A stretch of DNA of 51,770 bases from Bacteroidota bacterium (GTDB taxonomy: Bacteria; Bacteroidota; Bacteroidia; UBA8524), in NCBI GenBank assembly GCA_016124735.1, contig WGMZ01000014.1, positions 1 through 51,770 on the forward strand, in the 5' to 3' direction. Below, one piece after another: positions 10,286-18,191 of this stretch. Made by a program: the position numbers and the translations under genes. How positions within the stretch are numbered: position 1 is the first letter of the stretch; the number at the start of each line of letters is the position of its first letter. Below the pieces are notes generated by a model. That model worked only from the letters and a program-made list of their open reading frames with translations, was not told the origin of the DNA and searched no databases.

Positions 10286-11002
10286 TTGCTAAAGAAGTTA
10301 TCCATTGTTATTCCTGCCTATAATGAAGGCAAAACCATTCATTTTATTCTTGATAAAATCAAGGATGTGGAATTGATTGGTGACATTGAGAAGGAGCTGA
10401 TCATTGTCAATGATTGCTCGAAAGATAACACGGTGGAAGCCGTAGAAAATTACATGAAGACCAACCCTGACCTGCCGATTAGTTTCTATTCGCATGAAGT
10501 GAATAAAGGCAAAGGGGCAGCCTTGCATACGGGAATAGAGAAAGCTACCGGTGATGTGGTGATCATTCAGGATGCGGATTTGGAATACGATCCCCGCGAA
10601 TACAATGACGTGCTTAAACCGTTCAGAGAAGGTGTGGCAGACGTGGTTTATGGTTCCCGTTTTATGGGTGGCAACCCACATCGTATTCTTTTCTTTTGGC
10701 ACACGCTCGGCAATAAATTCCTGACCTTTCTTTCTAATATGTTCACTAACCTGAATTTGTCGGATATGGAAACCTGTTATAAGGCTTTCAATCGGGAATT
10801 GATTCAGGGCATTCAGTTGAATGAAAAACGTTTTGGATTTGAGCCCGAGGTTACTGCGAAAATCGCGCGTATCGACAAAATCAGAATCTATGAGGTAGGA
10901 ATTTCCTACTACGGCAGAACCTACGAAGAAGGGAAAAAGATAGGCTGGAGAGATGGCTTCAGGGCAATCTGGTGCATTCTGAAATACAACCTTTTCCGTT
11001 AG
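10286..11002 (+). CDS. Family 2 glycosyltransferase (dolichyl-phosphate-mannose-synthase-like)
   Basis: A 238-residue GT-A enzyme that transfers a sugar from a nucleotide-sugar, in this subfamily often to a polyprenyl phosphate. Motifs in order: [13 protein letters not shown] at the N-terminus, [42 protein letters not shown] (with the DAD metal-binding motif), [10 protein letters not shown], and the [10 protein letters not shown] acceptor region. There are no membrane spans, so it is a cytosolic or peripheral catalytic subunit. The start is TTG 10286, directly before the conserved first strand. It is divergent from polA and converges on the receiver gene ending at 10999, overlapping it by four bases. 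Confidence 0.88.
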
Positions 11003-11376
11003 GAAAGGTGTGACTTTAATTCTTTCACATTGAGCGGTTTCTTGATAAATTCTGTGACCAAAGGGTTTGCTTTGGCTTTTGAGATATCACTGAAATCAAG
11101 AGAAGAGGATACCATGAAGATTTGGGTGATATCGAAATTCAGGTTTGTAATCTGTTCGTAGGCTTTTAAAAAGTCAAAACCGTCCATCTCAGGCATTTGA
11201 ATATCCAGGAGGATGATATCCGGTTGAGTATTGTTTTTTTCTAAATAAGAGAGTGCTTCTCTTGCCGTGGTAAACGAAATGACCGAATCACTGATCCCAC
11301 TCAGTCGAATCAGTTTCTCATGGAGAAACAAATCAATCTCATTGTCGTCTACGAGCATGATTTGAAGTGAATTCAT
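10999..11376 (-). CDS. Single-domain response regulator (CheY-like receiver)
   Basis: 125 residues, receiver domain only. The acidic pair DD (10-11), phosphoacceptor D58 in [12 protein letters not shown], the switch serine region FMVSSS and the conserved Lys in FIKKPL are all visible. There is no output domain, so it would act by phosphotransfer or protein contact. It is the last gene of the overlapping operon running from 17604; its ATG overlaps the stop of the receiver-kinase gene by four bases. Its natural partners are the two kinases encoded immediately upstream. The receiver family is certain, the partner assignment is inferred from position. Confidence 0.92.
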
Positions 11377-12500: not shown

Positions 12501-14651
12501 TTAATTGGTGTTTAATTTTGCCTCTATCGGTAAAGTTATTATGAATTCAGTTCCTTTTCCTAATTCTGTATTTACCGCAATATTTCCTCCGTGCGTTTCA
12601 ATGATTTTAAAAACAATCGACAAGCCAAGTCCGGTTCCTTCTCCCACATCTTTGGTGGTGAAAAAGGGTTCAAATATTCTTGCTTTCACATCGTCGGTCA
12701 TTCCGGGACCGGAGTCCTTAATATGGAAATACACGTTCTTATCATCGAATTCTGAGGTGACTTTAAGGGTATGTTTTTCTTCCTGATCAACAGTCTTCAT
12801 GGCCTGCAACGCATTGGACAAGATATTCATAAATACCTGGTTGATTTTTCCAGGGAAGCATTCCACTGGAGGCAGATCGCCCAACTCAGTTTCCACCAAT
12901 ACGTTATCTGGTATACTGTTTCTTAGCAAAATCAGAGTGGAATTCAACCCTTCATTCAGATCGGCAGGTTTCAGATCAGATTCATCCAGACGGCTGAAAG
13001 TTTTAAGTCCTTTTACAATTTCTGAGGTACGTATGGCTCCATCTTCAATTCCGGTAAGTAATTCGGTTACCTCATTTCGGATATAATCGAAGTCGATCTC
13101 TTTCATGAAATCTTCAACGGATTTCACTTTTTCTTTTGGATCATCAGCCTTGTATGCTTCACCGTATTGATCGATGATGCTTAAAATATCCTGAATATCC
13201 AGCCGTAATGGCTGAACATTGGCACTCACAAAATTTATGGGGTTATTAATTTCGTGTGCAATTCCTGCAGTGAGCTGACCGAGAGAGGCCATTTTTTCTG
13301 CGTCAACCAACTGAGCCTGTGTTTCTTTCAAATGGTTCAACGTTACTACTAACTCCTCGTTTGTTTCTTGCAACTCAATGGTTCTCTCTTGTACCTTTTG
13401 TTCCAGGTATGCGTTCTGTTCGCGTATAATGCGCTCATTTTCTTTTGAAACACGCAGTGCTTCTTCCTGCGAGGCTTCTTTTTCTTTCTTTAGAATATTG
13501 ATGCGATCGGCCAATGCAAAGGAGAGCAGCATAACTTCAATTGCTGAGCCAACCGGCATCATATAATAAGTGAAATTGTTGTAAGGAAGTATGCCAAAAT
13601 CTTTCATCACATACATGGATACTCCCACCAGAAATACAGCCCAGGCAATGGCAAAGAAGAAGGCCGGTCTGTCGCCGGTTCTGGCTCTTCGAATGGCTAC
13701 TGTCATCATCGCTGCCGAAGCAACCACCGCGCAGGTTTCTATTAGGTAGAAGCTTGCACTGTAGCTTCCCATAAAGGACAGGGCGGTACCAAGCGCATAG
13801 AAGGAAGTGACAACATAAAAAATGTACTTAAAATACTTGGAGTGTTCGTCCGTGTGCAGGAATACCCGCATAAACTGCATGCCCGTTATGCCCACCAAAG
13901 AAGGGAATAAGAAGCTGTTGTACCGCGCTAACCAGGGAATATTCGGCCAGAAATATTGGAAGCTATAACCCTGAATACTCGATTGAGTGAGGATGACAAA
14001 GAATAGATAGAGTACATAATAGAAATAGGATTTATCCCGGGTACTGATCCAAATGAATCCGTTGTAAAGCAACATTACAAACATGATTCCCAGATATATT
14101 CCGGAATAAACATCTTTTTTCTTGGCAAGTTCAAGCATTGCCTGCCGGGAGCCTATGGACATAGGAACCTGAACATTTTCTTTTGCTTTGACTTTTAAAT
14201 AGATTGTTGAGCTAGATCCATTTTGCATTTCAAATGGTAACATGTAACTGGGGTCATAATACCAGCGATCACTGAATACCTTGTATTCTCCCAGCGTCAG
14301 ATTGATTACACTGTCTCCCCGCTCATAATAGAAAGAAACATAATCTAAAATGGGCTGGGAAACCTGAAGGACAAAGTCACTTAATTTGGTTTCGTTTTTT
14401 ACTTCAACCTTTAGCCAAAAAGTGGAAGTACTAATTCCAAAGTTTGGAACATCATGCTTCACCGGTGCGAAAGGAAGTTTTTTAACCTGTTGAAAATTGA
14501 GGGTGTCTTCCTTCAGCTCAAAAAAGGAGCAATTGTTTTTTATTTGAATGACCTCGTCGGGTTTGCTGATGGTAACCTCTGGTTGTTGTGCCCATAGCGA
14601 TTGCGTACCCAACAATACACTAAAAATACAAGCTATAAATCCCTTGGTCAT
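12501..14651 (-). CDS. 7TMR-DISM sensor histidine kinase
   Basis: 716 residues. A signal peptide (cleavage near AQ, 21-22) is followed by a periplasmic 7TMR-DISMED2-type beta domain (~25-170; FELKEDTLNFQQV, STFWLKVEVKN), a module thought to bind carbohydrate-like or small ligands. Seven hydrophobic segments follow (~183-380), then a coiled coil (~385-450) and a HisKA with MASLGQLTAGIAHEINNPINF (phosphoacceptor H466). The ATPase has NILSNALQAM, DSGPGM and GTGLGLSIV. This architecture detects an extracytoplasmic signal. Its ATG overlaps the end of the acyltransferase gene (ATGA), linking sensing to the two biosynthetic-looking genes upstream. Confidence 0.93.
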   Translation of the reverse strand: MTKGFIACIFSVLLGTQSLWAQQPEVTISKPDEVIQIKNNCSFFELKEDTLNFQQVKKLPFAPVKHDVPNFGISTSTFWLKVEVKNETKLSDFVLQVSQPILDYVSFYYERGDSVINLTLGEYKVFSDRWYYDPSYMLPFEMQNGSSSTIYLKVKAKENVQVPMSIGSRQAMLELAKKKDVYSGIYLGIMFVMLLYNGFIWISTRDKSYFYYVLYLFFVILTQSSIQGYSFQYFWPNIPWLARYNSFLFPSLVGITGMQFMRVFLHTDEHSKYFKYIFYVVTSFYALGTALSFMGSYSASFYLIETCAVVASAAMMTVAIRRARTGDRPAFFFAIAWAVFLVGVSMYVMKDFGILPYNNFTYYMMPVGSAIEVMLLSFALADRINILKKEKEASQEEALRVSKENERIIREQNAYLEQKVQERTIELQETNEELVVTLNHLKETQAQLVDAEKMASLGQLTAGIAHEINNPINFVSANVQPLRLDIQDILSIIDQYGEAYKADDPKEKVKSVEDFMKEIDFDYIRNEVTELLTGIEDGAIRTSEIVKGLKTFSRLDESDLKPADLNEGLNSTLILLRNSIPDNVLVETELGDLPPVECFPGKINQVFMNILSNALQAMKTVDQEEKHTLKVTSEFDDKNVYFHIKDSGPGMTDDVKARIFEPFFTTKDVGEGTGLGLSIVFKIIETHGGNIAVNTELGKGTEFIITLPIEAKLNTN

Positions 14652-15334
14652 TTACTATTTAATTTGAGATTATACTCTATTTCAAGATCTTTTATTCCAG
14701 GATATTCTATGGTCTTCTGTTCTGGATTTGAGCGGAGGGAAAGCATTCGCAGGCGATCTTCCTCTTCTGCAGTTTCCAGATTTCGGGCGTTCAAGATACC
14801 CAAAACTCTTGCAATATAGTTTTCATTTGGGTAAACAAATTCGCCCCCTTCGCCCAGTGTTTCGTCTACCACAAACCCTACTTTTCTGAACATTTTCAGG
14901 GTATAATCGGCGCATATACCCACCATGGTAGATATACCCACCTGGCTGCAAATTGAAATTCCGGCCCTTGACAGTAATAAACTTAATCCTTTACCTGCCA
15001 CGGATTTAGCGTTCCACAAGGCACACAATTCACCAACCCCCTCGGGAATATAGGAAGCCACAATTTTGTAAATACTCGGATCCCGATATCCAATTGCCTT
15101 TTCTACAGGTAATTTGTGCACGCCATCGGCTTTCTGCATACGAATTCCTCCCACCATTTCGCCCGCCTCATTGTAAACTACAACACAGTAAACACAATCC
15201 AGAGACGCCCATTCGTTGTTATTTGACGTGATGTTTGTAATACCATAATCCTTTAACACACGGACATGTCCTTCTGTGTATTCACGACAGTATTCTGGTT
15301 CGTCGATGGCCCGGAAAGCTTTAAACTGGAACAT
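14648..15334 (-). CDS. Putative N-acyltransferase (GNAT fold, LuxI/FeeM-like)
   Basis: 228 residues. The order of elements resembles autoinducer-synthase and N-acyl-amino-acid-synthase folds: an N-terminal R/W-rich region, then VVYNEAGEMVGGIRMQKAD (strand pair like the LuxI GclRLlP segment), GVGELCALWNAKSVAGKGLS with E102 (where LuxI has its WElsR strand and GNATs their acyl-CoA loop), an amphipathic helix, and GISTMVGICADYTLKMFRKVGF, the typical late strand-helix-strand of this fold. Such enzymes move an acyl chain from ACP or CoA to an amine. Family membership is my inference from pattern and the substrate is unknown. It overlaps both operon neighbours. Confidence 0.65.
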   Translation of the reverse strand: MFQFKAFRAIDEPEYCREYTEGHVRVLKDYGITNITSNNNEWASLDCVYCVVVYNEAGEMVGGIRMQKADGVHKLPVEKAIGYRDPSIYKIVASYIPEGVGELCALWNAKSVAGKGLSLLLSRAGISICSQVGISTMVGICADYTLKMFRKVGFVVDETLGEGGEFVYPNENYIARVLGILNARNLETAEEEDRLRMLSLRSNPEQKTIEYPGIKDLEIEYNLKLNSK

Positions 15335-17604
15335 TATGCTTTTATTAAAATATCTTCGACCGCCAGTCTGAGGGCTCGTTTGCTTGGGTTGCCTCCCTGA
15401 CTGATTCGGAATAAGAAGATTCCCCTATTTTCCTGCAATATGGGAGATGTTTTATCAATTTCCGCCTTAAAGAGCTGAATTTCTTTTATTAAATCATTGT
15501 TTAGTAAGTTGTTTTGCTTCTGCAAGCGGTTGATGAAAAACAGTGGTGCCGAAACTGGATGCACAGACCAGCCTCCCGTGTTTGCAGTAATCCAGGCTCT
15601 TTGTACTGCCTTTCCGGGCAATAAGGATTTTTGAGGAATTTCAGGAATGCTTGTCAGTAAACAGAGCCCGGAAGAAGACCGCACTGAATCTGCGCTTAGT
15701 TTTGCTAATCCGTCACCTTTGTCCCATTGACGAATTATTGTCATCACTTCCTGATCACTGGCAACTTCCATCCCCGAAGTTTGAGATGCAGTAAGCTCGA
15801 GTGTTTCAATATCCAATCCATCCCGCGTCCGTTCCACTTCCTCCGGTGTCCATCTGATTTCATCGTGGAAGAATTCGAAATGCGCCTGAGGATCCAGAAA
15901 CCGCAGACGCTCTGCTCGGCCAACAATTTTTGCCCAAGCCTCTTTTTCTTCTGCTTTATAGATGAAGGTTGCTGCCATTCCAGGTATTTTAGCTACTTCA
16001 TCCTGAATGGATTGCATGATGGCATCTGATATAGGTTCTTCGTGCCCTTTTTTTCTGTTAGAGCAGCGGATTTCGATACCCTTGGCCAATTCGTCTTCCG
16101 GAGCATTTTGATCTGCTTCGAAGGAATACGCTGCAATCAATTGGTCTTTAAAGAGTGGCTTTTCTGAGCAGCGTAATTTATTTCTTCCCGCCGCAAGCTC
16201 CATGTTTTCGGAGGCCGCACCCAGTCCAATCATCGCCAGGCTGTCATCGTAATCAGTCCAGCCGTAACTTCTGGATTTTTCGTGGAATAAAAAAAGATGG
16301 CCTTTGTGAAACAGCCACTTCCAGGGTTGATTATTTCCGGCTGAAGGCGCCATTCCCGCAAGTTCTACCAGTTGAGTCGCAGTGTGTTCTTTGAGAATTC
16401 CCTGATCCCAGTTCAAGTCTTTCATGGCATTATCCGCGGCGGAAATCATCTGGGCTTTTTCAAGTTTTGAATAGGTCCAATGTTCCGGCACAAATGGTTT
16501 CTTTTGAAAATCTTTGTCACGAATAAGCTCGTCCAGATCGATAAAATACCTGCCGGAATCGTGAAACTGATCCAAAAAGATTCTTCTCACCGTATCTGCA
16601 GCCAGGGCTCCGCCCATGGCAACGGAAGTGGCTAGCTGGGGCCAGGTGTGAATGCTTTCACCCACTTCAATCATGGAAGCTTTGAGTCGTTTGCTAATGG
16701 TATCCATTCCGAAAATGGGGAGCATGAATGGAATCTTTTCTTCATTGGTCATACCGCCCATTTGAGTATAATCGAGATGATCAATCCAGCCGTGGAGAAT
16801 GGGTCGATCAGGCTCGAGATCAAAACGCTCCACATCAATGGTGCCCCGATCGCTCATGTCCATAACCACCGGTATTTTCATTTTCCGGGCCTCTACTCGG
16901 AGCAATATTTTTATGTCGATGCTATCGCATTCATCCACTACTAAATCCAGGTCGCCATGTTCATGAAAGAAGGGGTGGAGATTTTCCTGGGTAAGGCCAT
17001 CGGTGAAGACCCGAATGGTGAAATAGGGATCGATCTCTTTGATTTCGCGTGCAACCATGACAGACTTATTGACTCCCATGCTGTGCACTCCTGCCCTGAT
17101 CCGATTGAGATTTGCAAGTTCCAGTACGTCGTAGTCGGCAATGCGAATTTCACCACAGATTCTCTCCATGGTACTAACAAGGGAAATAGATTGACCCACA
17201 GACAAACCAACCACGCCAATTTTTTTTTCCCGAAGGATGGCCTGCTCATCGCGTGTTATTTTTGGGTTGTTCGGGCTCATCCGGGTGAAGATGAAATCCT
17301 CTTCATCTAAGAGATGAACCAAACGACGACTCCATGGATAATAAACCCACACCCCGAAGCTAAAACGGTCTCTGTTTTCAAAGAAAGCTTCAATTTCTTT
17401 TTTCAGACTTTCCCCTTTTAATTTTTTTTTCGGAAACCGGGCCCGAAGCATTTCGCCAACTTGAGAGTCGATTTCATCGTATGAAAATATCTGAGGGTCC
17501 TCCCGGAGACAATGAATAAGATCTGCATCTTCTTTTTTTGAAGGGTAAAGAAATCGCGGTTCCCAGTCGCTTGAGAGGCAATTTTTTATTTCTTGCAGGG
17601 TCAT
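15334..17604 (-). CDS. ThiF/E1-like and nitroreductase fusion (Rv1355c-like)
   Basis: 756 residues in two enzyme domains. Residues ~127-345 are a ThiF/MoeB/E1-type adenylating domain: IGVVGLSVGQS, IADYDVLELANLNRIRAG (R169 at the Arg-finger position), NKSVMV, and LVVDECDSIDIKILL. No E1-type zinc CxxC pair or obvious catalytic Cys is seen. Residues ~405-730 are nitroreductase-like (AGMAPSAGNNQPWKW, then DSLAMIGLGAASENMELAA), expected to bind FMN. The fusion corresponds to the Rv1355c-type family, whose reaction is not known. E1-like plus nitroreductase-like activities also occur together in azole-peptide (TOMM) biosynthesis, an analogy only. It heads the overlapping operon ending at 10999. Confidence 0.85.
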   Translation of the reverse strand: MTLQEIKNCLSSDWEPRFLYPSKKEDADLIHCLREDPQIFSYDEIDSQVGEMLRARFPKKKLKGESLKKEIEAFFENRDRFSFGVWVYYPWSRRLVHLLDEEDFIFTRMSPNNPKITRDEQAILREKKIGVVGLSVGQSISLVSTMERICGEIRIADYDVLELANLNRIRAGVHSMGVNKSVMVAREIKEIDPYFTIRVFTDGLTQENLHPFFHEHGDLDLVVDECDSIDIKILLRVEARKMKIPVVMDMSDRGTIDVERFDLEPDRPILHGWIDHLDYTQMGGMTNEEKIPFMLPIFGMDTISKRLKASMIEVGESIHTWPQLATSVAMGGALAADTVRRIFLDQFHDSGRYFIDLDELIRDKDFQKKPFVPEHWTYSKLEKAQMISAADNAMKDLNWDQGILKEHTATQLVELAGMAPSAGNNQPWKWLFHKGHLFLFHEKSRSYGWTDYDDSLAMIGLGAASENMELAAGRNKLRCSEKPLFKDQLIAAYSFEADQNAPEDELAKGIEIRCSNRKKGHEEPISDAIMQSIQDEVAKIPGMAATFIYKAEEKEAWAKIVGRAERLRFLDPQAHFEFFHDEIRWTPEEVERTRDGLDIETLELTASQTSGMEVASDQEVMTIIRQWDKGDGLAKLSADSVRSSSGLCLLTSIPEIPQKSLLPGKAVQRAWITANTGGWSVHPVSAPLFFINRLQKQNNLLNNDLIKEIQLFKAEIDKTSPILQENRGIFLFRISQGGNPSKRALRLAVEDILIKA

Positions 17605-17684
17605 GTCGTTTGGATTTACGTAATTATTCGATTAACATTCGCAAATAATGTTCAATTGAGCAATAATTCAACTCTAATTACGAA

Positions 17685-17714
17685 TTGTTTGAGTGAATTG
17701 AATTTATAAATTTG
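17685..17714 (+). promoter_or_regulatory. Promoter (TTG-N19-TAAATTTG) for the divergent receiver gene
   Basis: A -33 TTG at 17685-17687 and a perfect -7 TAAATTTG at 17707-17714, spaced 19 bases, in agreement with the Bacteroidota consensus. The start site would fall just before ATG 17730. For the opposite operon only a weak near-match is seen around 17642. Confidence 0.65.
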
Positions 17715-17729
17715 TAGGGGAGAGAATTT

Positions 17730-18191
17730 ATGACACAGGCAATCAACGTACTTTATGTCGATGACGAGCAAAACAATTTGCTTTCGTTCAAGGCGGCATT
17801 TCGTCGCGATTTTAATGTACACACGGCTATTTCCGGTTCGGAAGCTTTGGAAATCGTGAAGAACGAGGATATTAACATCATCATTACGGACCAGCGAATG
17901 CCGAACATGACTGGCGTGGAGTTTTTGCAAAGAGTCATTCCAATTGCACCAAATCCAATCCGAATTTTACTTACGGGCTACAGCGATATCAATGCAGTAG
18001 TGGATGCAATCAACAAAGGGGAAGTGTATCGTTATCTTACAAAGCCGTGGGATAATGAATTCCTGAAAACAACGATCCGTCAGGCACATGAAGTTTTTAA
18101 CCTCAGACAGGAAAACCTTCGTCTGATTGACGAACTGAGTCGTGCCAACGAACAACTTGAGTTTTATCTTCGTCAAAAATTACTTTCCTAA
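17730..18191 (+). CDS. Response regulator receiver with C-terminal coiled coil
   Basis: 153 residues. The receiver has DD (11-12), phosphoacceptor D54 in IITDQRMPNMTG, the switch Thr in LLTGYS and Lys in YLTKPWD, as in receivers found on RpfG-type HD-GYP proteins. After residue ~120 only a helical heptad-like tail remains (FNLRQENLRLIDELSRANEQLEF), so there is no output enzyme or DNA-binding domain. It may be a truncated or stand-alone adaptor. The receiver is a close paralog of the one in the hybrid kinase at 11373, and the gene is divergent from that kinase's operon, suggesting a shared pathway. It ends seven bases from the convergent phosphohexomutase gene. Confidence 0.9.
   Translation: MTQAINVLYVDDEQNNLLSFKAAFRRDFNVHTAISGSEALEIVKNEDINIIITDQRMPNMTGVEFLQRVIPIAPNPIRILLTGYSDINAVVDAINKGEVYRYLTKPWDNEFLKTTIRQAHEVFNLRQENLRLIDELSRANEQLEFYLRQKLLS

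What the first reader, a model, noticed from the sequence alone, without database searches (positions are those of the whole stretch)
15334..17604. E1-like adenylation domain fused to a nitroreductase domain, reaction unknown
The two domains are joined in one 756-residue chain (E1-like ~127-345, nitroreductase-like ~405-730). In azole-peptide biosynthesis an E1-like protein and an FMN dehydrogenase also cooperate, though with a YcaO enzyme and a precursor peptide, neither of which is visible here. A one-chain activate-then-reduce enzyme would be new chemistry.
Basis: partly seen in the sequence, partly recalled or inferred. Interest (0 to 1): 0.6.

Follow-up and report, generated by a model that had tools for sequence, protein, structure and literature searches.

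The report
Oxazolone synthase wired to sensor kinase
The fused enzyme is a relative of a recently described bacterial enzyme (TrzS/OxzB) that turns fatty-acyl amino acids into oxazolones, so its chemistry is known, but in Bacteroidota it sits almost always in one operon with a dedicated membrane sensor kinase, which suggests that the still purposeless oxazolones are chemical signals.

Summary
In detail: a 756-residue ORF on the MINUS strand joins an E1/ThiF domain to an Acg-type nitroreductase, with the ATP and FMN residues conserved. The 'unknown reaction' is not unknown. The protein belongs to the Rv1355c family (NF005901), now TrzS: ATP-dependent cyclisation, then FMN/O2 desaturation, of an N-acyl amino acid to an oxazolone (OxzB 2021; TyzBC 2023; TrzS 2025).

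New here is the context. In Bacteroidota 64 of 70 sampled trzS genes lie beside a 7TMR-DISM histidine kinase, the only one in the window's genome, usually followed by REC-kinase and REC genes. The cassette survives in unrelated surroundings, and its carboxylate-capping enzyme is swapped: ThiF plus oxidase, ThiF alone, a SAM methyltransferase or an ICMT. Layout matches Ralstonia phcBSRQ. Actinobacterial relatives sit beside GAF-GGDEF-EAL proteins instead. Most likely the product is a self-made signal read by the kinase. This is inferred; ligand, substrate and output are untested. I found no paper on this link. The enzyme is known; the synthase-sensor cassette is a new variant.

The parts
15334..17604 (-). 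trzS-like gene, 756 aa: ThiF-type cyclase fused to an FMN-dependent oxidase. D227 = Msmeg TrzS D217 (ATP), R568 = R540 and H682 = Q651 (FMN pocket).
   Evidence: PMC12856293
14648..15334 (-). trzA-like N-acyl amino acid synthase, 228 aa; start overlaps the trzS stop (TAATG); single copy in the genome
   Evidence: AF2 pLDDT 94; best PDB fold FeeM 2g0b, E 8e-8, then acyl-homoserine-lactone synthases BjaI, MesI; 23% identity, E 4e-11, to the TrzA-position protein of Rhodococcus koreensis
12501..14651 (-). sensor histidine kinase, 716 aa: extracellular 7TMR-DISMED2, 7TMR-DISM 7TM, HisKA (H466), HATPase; overlaps trzA by 4 bases; only 7TMR-DISM protein found in the genome
11373..12470 (-). soluble REC-histidine kinase, 365 aa (D55, H153), 30 bases after the sensor; same domains as PhcR
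10999..11376 (-). single-domain response regulator, 125 aa (D58); overlaps the previous gene by 4 bases; compare PhcQ
17730..18191 (+). divergent response regulator, 153 aa (REC, D54, helical tail, no DNA-binding domain found); conserved beside most Bacteroidota cassettes
17605..17729 (.). 125-base intergenic region between the divergent REC gene and trzS; presumed divergent promoter, not mapped

Best explanation
The window carries an oxazolone biosynthesis-and-sensing operon. The 228-aa acyltransferase (TrzA type) joins an acyl group to an amino acid. The ThiF domain of the 756-aa protein adenylates the carboxylate with ATP and closes it onto the amide to give an azlactone (oxazolone), and the FMN domain of the same chain then desaturates it with O2. 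The uncharged product is detected by the 7TMR-DISM histidine kinase made from the gene after the acyltransferase, which passes phosphate to the REC-kinase and REC proteins of the operon; the product is thus a self-made signal (quorum or diffusion sensing), laid out like Ralstonia phcB-S-R-Q. Shown here: domains, residues, fold, gene linkage and its conservation, swapping of the capping enzyme. Shown elsewhere for homologues: the acyltransferase, cyclase and oxidase reactions. Inferred: that this copy does the same chemistry (about 0.85), that the kinase senses the product (about 0.6), the amino acid and acyl chain (unknown), and the output genes (unknown).
For: Enzymology: NF005901 far above cut-off; catalytic columns D227 in 73/73, R168 73/73, R568 67/73 of fused homologues, and the spacings D-R (~323) and R-Q (111) of the published mutants D217/R540/Q651 are met; published reaction order and mutants; TrzA model nearest FeeM. 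Signalling: sensor beside trzS in 64 of 70 class-sample genomes by comparing coordinates, three further ones broken at contig ends (one checked); 39 of 41 fetched class loci and 29 of 29 named Bacteroidota loci; the window's genome has one 7TMR-DISM protein in 3.1 Mb, and it is this one. Linkage outlives its surroundings: the window's flanking genes recur only at the two nearest relatives' loci, apart from one gene at one other locus, while TrzA stands before or after ThiF in different genomes. The cassette sensors form one side of a branch apart from one paralogue. Where trzS is missing, the same TrzA-sensor-REC cassette holds a SAM methyltransferase (6 loci) or an isoprenylcysteine-type carboxyl methyltransferase (1) in its place: different ways to cap one carboxylate, one kind of sensor. 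Capping type needs at least 16 changes on the sensor tree. phc operon: methyltransferase, HK, REC+HK, REC. Actinobacteria: GAF-GGDEF-EAL proteins directly downstream.
Against: No ligand binding, phosphotransfer or metabolite was tested. Gene linkage also fits a kinase that merely regulates synthesis. Three trzS genes have no sensor beside them (G202, G197, G184), so the enzyme can work without it. The window's response regulators have no DNA-binding domain, so the output is unknown. Azlactones hydrolyse easily (PMC12856293), and tryptazolones stayed mostly in the cells there. TrzA here is only 23% identical to the actinobacterial one compared, so the substrate may differ. Methyl-ester formation by the swapped methyltransferases is assumed, not shown. 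Support for the sensor clade is 93 (SH-aLRT, quick tree).
Confidence: 0.6

Rival explanations
1. The oxazolone is an end product (stress metabolite, membrane lipid or antimicrobial) and the kinase is only the switch of its biosynthesis, sensing something else such as envelope or oxidative stress.
For: Oxazolone production in Proteobacteria is induced by sub-inhibitory antibiotics, and tyz genes are linked to oxidative stress (PMC12856293). Pathway-specific regulators commonly sit beside biosynthetic genes.
Against: The same sensor group stays when the capping chemistry changes to a methyltransferase or loses the oxidase, and with TrzA when trzS lies elsewhere (G202); the regulators lack DNA-binding domains in the window; relatives in another phylum pair the enzyme with a different signalling output.
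Confidence: 0.28
2. The protein makes a non-oxazolone product: E1-type activation of an N-acyl amino acid for another cyclisation or condensation, e.g. in ThiF-only relatives a saturated azlactone or a transferred acyl group.
For: 26 of 73 Bacteroidota-side ThiF sequences stand alone, and 16 of 16 such genomes tested have no Acg-type oxidase elsewhere, so desaturation is dispensable in the family; the substrate of the window's enzyme is unknown.
Against: The window's copy keeps both domains and the catalytic columns; the characterised fusions (OxzB, TrzS) make oxazolones.
Confidence: 0.1
3. Non-catalytic scaffold.
For: None found.
Against: ATP-site residues G130, G133, G137, D159, N165, N167, R168, K180 and D227 are invariant across fused homologues, and oxidase residues N424, Q426, W428, R513 and R517 are invariant or nearly so.
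Confidence: 0.01
4. RiPP azole-type machinery with a distant precursor and YcaO.
For: Shared E1-plus-FMN logic only.
Against: No YcaO in the genome, with positive controls; the partner is an N-acyltransferase.
Confidence: 0.01

Closest known systems
TrzAS (Rv1356c-Rv1355c), N-acyl tryptazolone biosynthesis, Mycobacteriaceae/Rhodococcus (PMC12856293, 2025)
   Same: ThiF-oxidase fusion above the NCBIfam cut-off for the Rv1355c family; neighbouring N-acyltransferase; D217/R540/Q651 columns.
   Different: 31-35% identity to plasmid-borne actinobacterial members; H instead of Q at the 651 column; TrzA only 23% identical to that of R. koreensis; two-component genes in the operon instead of c-di-GMP genes; substrate untested.
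OxzAB (Pseudoalteromonas rubra) and TyzACB (Mtb) (as described in PMC10404671)
   Same: Acyltransferase plus ThiF cyclase plus flavin-dependent oxidase making acyl-oxazolones; OxzB is a ThiF-NTR fusion too.
   Different: Published as different FDO and ThiF subclusters from Rv1355c; no sensor kinase cassette described.
Ralstonia phcBSRQ quorum sensing (PMC8578825, PMC11960443)
   Same: Synthase, membrane HK, REC+HK, REC in one operon; some Bacteroidota cassettes also carry a SAM methyltransferase.
   Different: Signal is a 3-hydroxy fatty acid methyl ester made by PhcB; here an acyltransferase supplies an N-acyl amino acid and the cap is an azlactone; sensor is 7TMR-DISM; homology of the sensors not tested; PhcA not sought.
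LuxI-type and FeeM synthases
   Same: TrzA fold: FeeM first, then BjaI, MesI, TofI, LasI.
   Different: No detectable sequence similarity to solved LuxI/FeeM chains; no LuxR-type AHL receptor in the cassette.

Membership tests
Rv1355c/TrzS oxazolone synthetases | Full-length match above the NF005901 cut-off | tested here: met
   710.7 bits against 476
Rv1355c/TrzS oxazolone synthetases | ATP-site Asp (D217) conserved | tested here: met
   D227, 73/73 fused homologues
Rv1355c/TrzS oxazolone synthetases | FMN-pocket Arg540 | tested here: met
   R568, 67/73
Rv1355c/TrzS oxazolone synthetases | FMN-pocket Gln651 (a mutated residue in M. smegmatis TrzS, not a stated family criterion) | tested here: inconclusive
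   H682 in the window; the column is Q in 46 and H in 26 of 73, H also in 18 Bacteroidota relatives: a natural variant rather than a loss
Rv1355c/TrzS oxazolone synthetases | Adjacent N-acyl amino acid synthase | tested here: met
   14648-15334, FeeM fold
Rv1355c/TrzS oxazolone synthetases | Makes an N-acyl oxazolone | not testable with these tools
   needs enzyme assay or metabolomics
Phc-type quorum-sensing operons | Synthase - HK - REC-HK - REC gene order | tested here: met
Phc-type quorum-sensing operons | Signal made by a PhcB-type methyltransferase | tested here: not met
   window has TrzA and ThiF-oxidase, no methyltransferase in the operon; only other cassettes have one
Phc-type quorum-sensing operons | Kinase senses the operon's product | not testable with these tools
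   no binding data
Azole-RiPP cyclodehydratase systems | YcaO protein | tested here: not met
   none in the genome

The most novel reading that the evidence does not exclude
Bacteroidota use a widespread cell-to-cell signalling system in which a FeeM/LuxI-fold synthase makes an N-acyl amino acid, an exchangeable enzyme caps its carboxylate (oxazolone by ThiF with or without oxidase, or methyl ester by a methyltransferase), and a dedicated 7TMR-DISM histidine kinase reads it; actinobacterial relatives feed the same kind of molecule into c-di-GMP control. This would give oxazolones their missing function.
Probability: 0.5. Interest if true: 0.85.

Novelty: new variant of a known kind. Interest (0 to 1): 0.6.

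Why it matters
The authors of the 2025 TrzAS paper call the physiological role of oxazolones a major unresolved question. A gene cassette in which the oxazolone-making enzymes travel with their own sensor kinase through many Bacteroidota makes that question directly testable by deleting synthase or sensor and comparing regulons. It would also point to an unrecognised class of signal in a phylum where, from my general knowledge, few small-molecule signal systems are defined, and to candidate ligands for 7TMR-DISM receptors.

Tried and rejected
RiPP azole reading: rejected (no YcaO). Scaffold reading: rejected. Reductase reading: homologous domains are O2-dependent oxidases. I first took the 2411-aa neighbour of trzS in L057 for an NRPS (an entry in the notebook still says so); Pfam shows SprA, so that idea was dropped. 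PDB sequence searches of TrzA gave nothing, only the fold search did. The 'of' option of the genome search takes only genome handles. The M. smegmatis TrzS sequence itself was not fetched; residue mapping rests on related mycobacterial sequences and on residue spacing. The Nature Chemical Biology 2021 OxzB paper is not held. Paper searches for oxazolone or N-acyl amino acid with histidine kinase or 7TMR-DISM found no description of the link; the library lacks most subscription journals, so this is not proof of novelty.

Full report
Observation. The ORF at 15334-17604 is real, on the minus strand, 756 aa. Residues 115-251 match ThiF and 411-689 the Acg/Rv3131 FMN oxidoreductases, and the whole chain passes the curated cut-off of NF005901, the Rv1355c family. 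A model from 23 homologues has two ordered domains (pLDDT 88) whose best PDB matches are the M. smegmatis Acg homologue 2ymv and AclA, ThiF, MoeB, MccB and TcdA.

The reaction is known. Rv1355c is TrzS: it cyclises N-acyl tryptophan with ATP and then desaturates it with FMN and O2 to a tryptazolone; TrzA (Rv1356c) supplies the N-acyl tryptophan. D217A abolishes both steps, R540A and Q651A damage the oxidase (PMC12856293). OxzAB and TyzACB do the like with tyrosine and phenylalanine (PMC10404671). In an alignment of 73 fused homologues the ATP-site Asp is D227 in the window (73/73), Arg540 is R568 (67/73) and Gln651 is H682 (Q in 46, H in 26); the spacings in mycobacterial homologues (about 323 and 111) match the published numbering. 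The order is cyclise then oxidise, not activate then reduce.

The missed partner. The next gene (14648-15334) shares one base with the trzS stop. It has only sub-threshold GNAT matches in Pfam, but its model (pLDDT 94) is nearest to FeeM, an N-acyl amino acid synthase, and then to acyl-homoserine-lactone synthases. It is 23% identical (E 4e-11) to the acyltransferase beside trzS in Rhodococcus koreensis. It occurs once in the genome. There is no YcaO.

The operon goes on. The acyltransferase gene overlaps by 4 bases a 716-aa histidine kinase with 7TMR-DISMED2 and 7TMR-DISM domains; then come a REC-kinase and a REC protein, and a divergent REC gene lies on the other side. Phosphorylation sites are intact.

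Is the linkage more than chance? In 396 genomes of the class, 70 have a trzS relative. Comparing coordinates with a search for the sensor, 64 have it within about 5 kb; in G054, G336 and G127 trzS lies at a contig end (G054 checked); G202, G197 and G184 are real exceptions. Of 41 fetched class loci 39 have it (L043 and L051 counted by eye, since an extra gene or spurious ORF intervenes; one search counts 37 within two genes), and all 29 named Bacteroidota loci with enough sequence do: Pedobacter, Algoriphagus, Belliella, Chitinophaga, Solitalea, Cryomorpha and others. The window's genome has one 7TMR-DISM protein (E <= 1e-10), and in most of the 14 genomes tested the best match is the cassette copy. 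Flanking genes outside the cassette are shared only with the two nearest relatives, apart from one gene at one further locus. Gene order inside varies. So the set is kept together against rearrangement.

A swapped middle. Genomes with a close sensor but no trzS match (L198-L204) have the same cassette with a class I SAM methyltransferase (six) or an ICMT-family carboxyl methyltransferase (one) in place of ThiF. About a third of the Bacteroidota-side ThiF proteins lack the oxidase (26 of 73) and ThiF-only proteins keep the ATP-site residues; in 16 of 16 such genomes no Acg-type oxidase was found elsewhere, while controls found theirs. In G202 trzS lies apart while TrzA-sensor-REC-kinase-REC stay together. 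The cassette sensors form one side of a branch (SH-aLRT 93) against 20 of 21 other 7TMR-DISM kinases; the exception, L158, is a second copy in G270. Capping type needs at least 16 changes on that tree. What stays constant is acyltransferase, sensor and phosphorelay; what varies is the enzyme that can cap the carboxylate. This is what one expects if the capped N-acyl amino acid is the ligand.

Comparison. Ralstonia phcBSRQ has a methyltransferase making the signal, a sensor HK, a REC+HK protein and a REC protein in one operon (PMC8578825). The Bacteroidota cassette works like it by layout; it is not claimed as a member, since the signal chemistry differs and homology was not tested. In Actinobacteria no 7TMR-DISM kinase is near; a GGDEF-EAL protein of the GAF-GGDEF-EAL kind lies within two genes downstream in 16 of 23 loci and within five genes either side in 19, extending the remark in PMC12856293 about rv1354c and rv1357c.

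What is shown and what is not. Shown: anatomy, residues, fold, linkage, swapping. Shown in homologues: the reactions. Not shown: substrate, product, ligand binding, output. The rival that the kinase merely controls synthesis remains open (about 0.28).

Noticed in passing
L098, L106, L109, L111, L115 and other actinobacterial loci, gene after trzS: GAF-GGDEF-EAL c-di-GMP proteins directly downstream of trzS in mycobacteria, Nocardia, Rhodococcus, Phytoactinopolyspora and Acidimicrobiaceae; the GAF domain is a candidate oxazolone receptor.
   Followed up: partly
L224:891-1955: In G054 an O-methyltransferase (Methyltransf_2) stands between TrzA and the sensor in a cassette that also has ThiF (on another contig): possibly a further decoration.
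   Followed up: partly
L043:11326-12776 and L094:6953-10930: Two trzA copies in one cassette, suggesting two signals or a mixed product.
   Followed up: no
L222:7421-9397: A second, solo 7TMR-DISM kinase of the cassette group in G270, with a REC gene but no synthase beside it: a possible listener.
   Followed up: partly
L199:12374-13015: The terminal REC of this cassette carries a LuxR-type HTH (GerE), so some cassettes have a direct transcriptional output.
   Followed up: no
L077:5125-8039: Streptomyces plasmid: ThiF protein of this family followed by a beta-ketoacyl-ACP synthase III gene, another acyl context.
   Followed up: no
residue H682 of the protein encoded at window 15334-17604: The FMN-pocket Gln651 column is Q or H across the family (46 against 26); the window has H. 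Could mark two oxidase subtypes.
   Followed up: partly
L057 (G202): A full ThiF-oxidase fusion away from any trzA, near SprA and ferredoxin-type genes, with the rest of the cassette on another contig (L211).
   Followed up: partly
L221 (G184): trzS fusion with no sensor and no trzA nearby; a close 7TMR-DISM hit was not found in that genome.
   Followed up: partly
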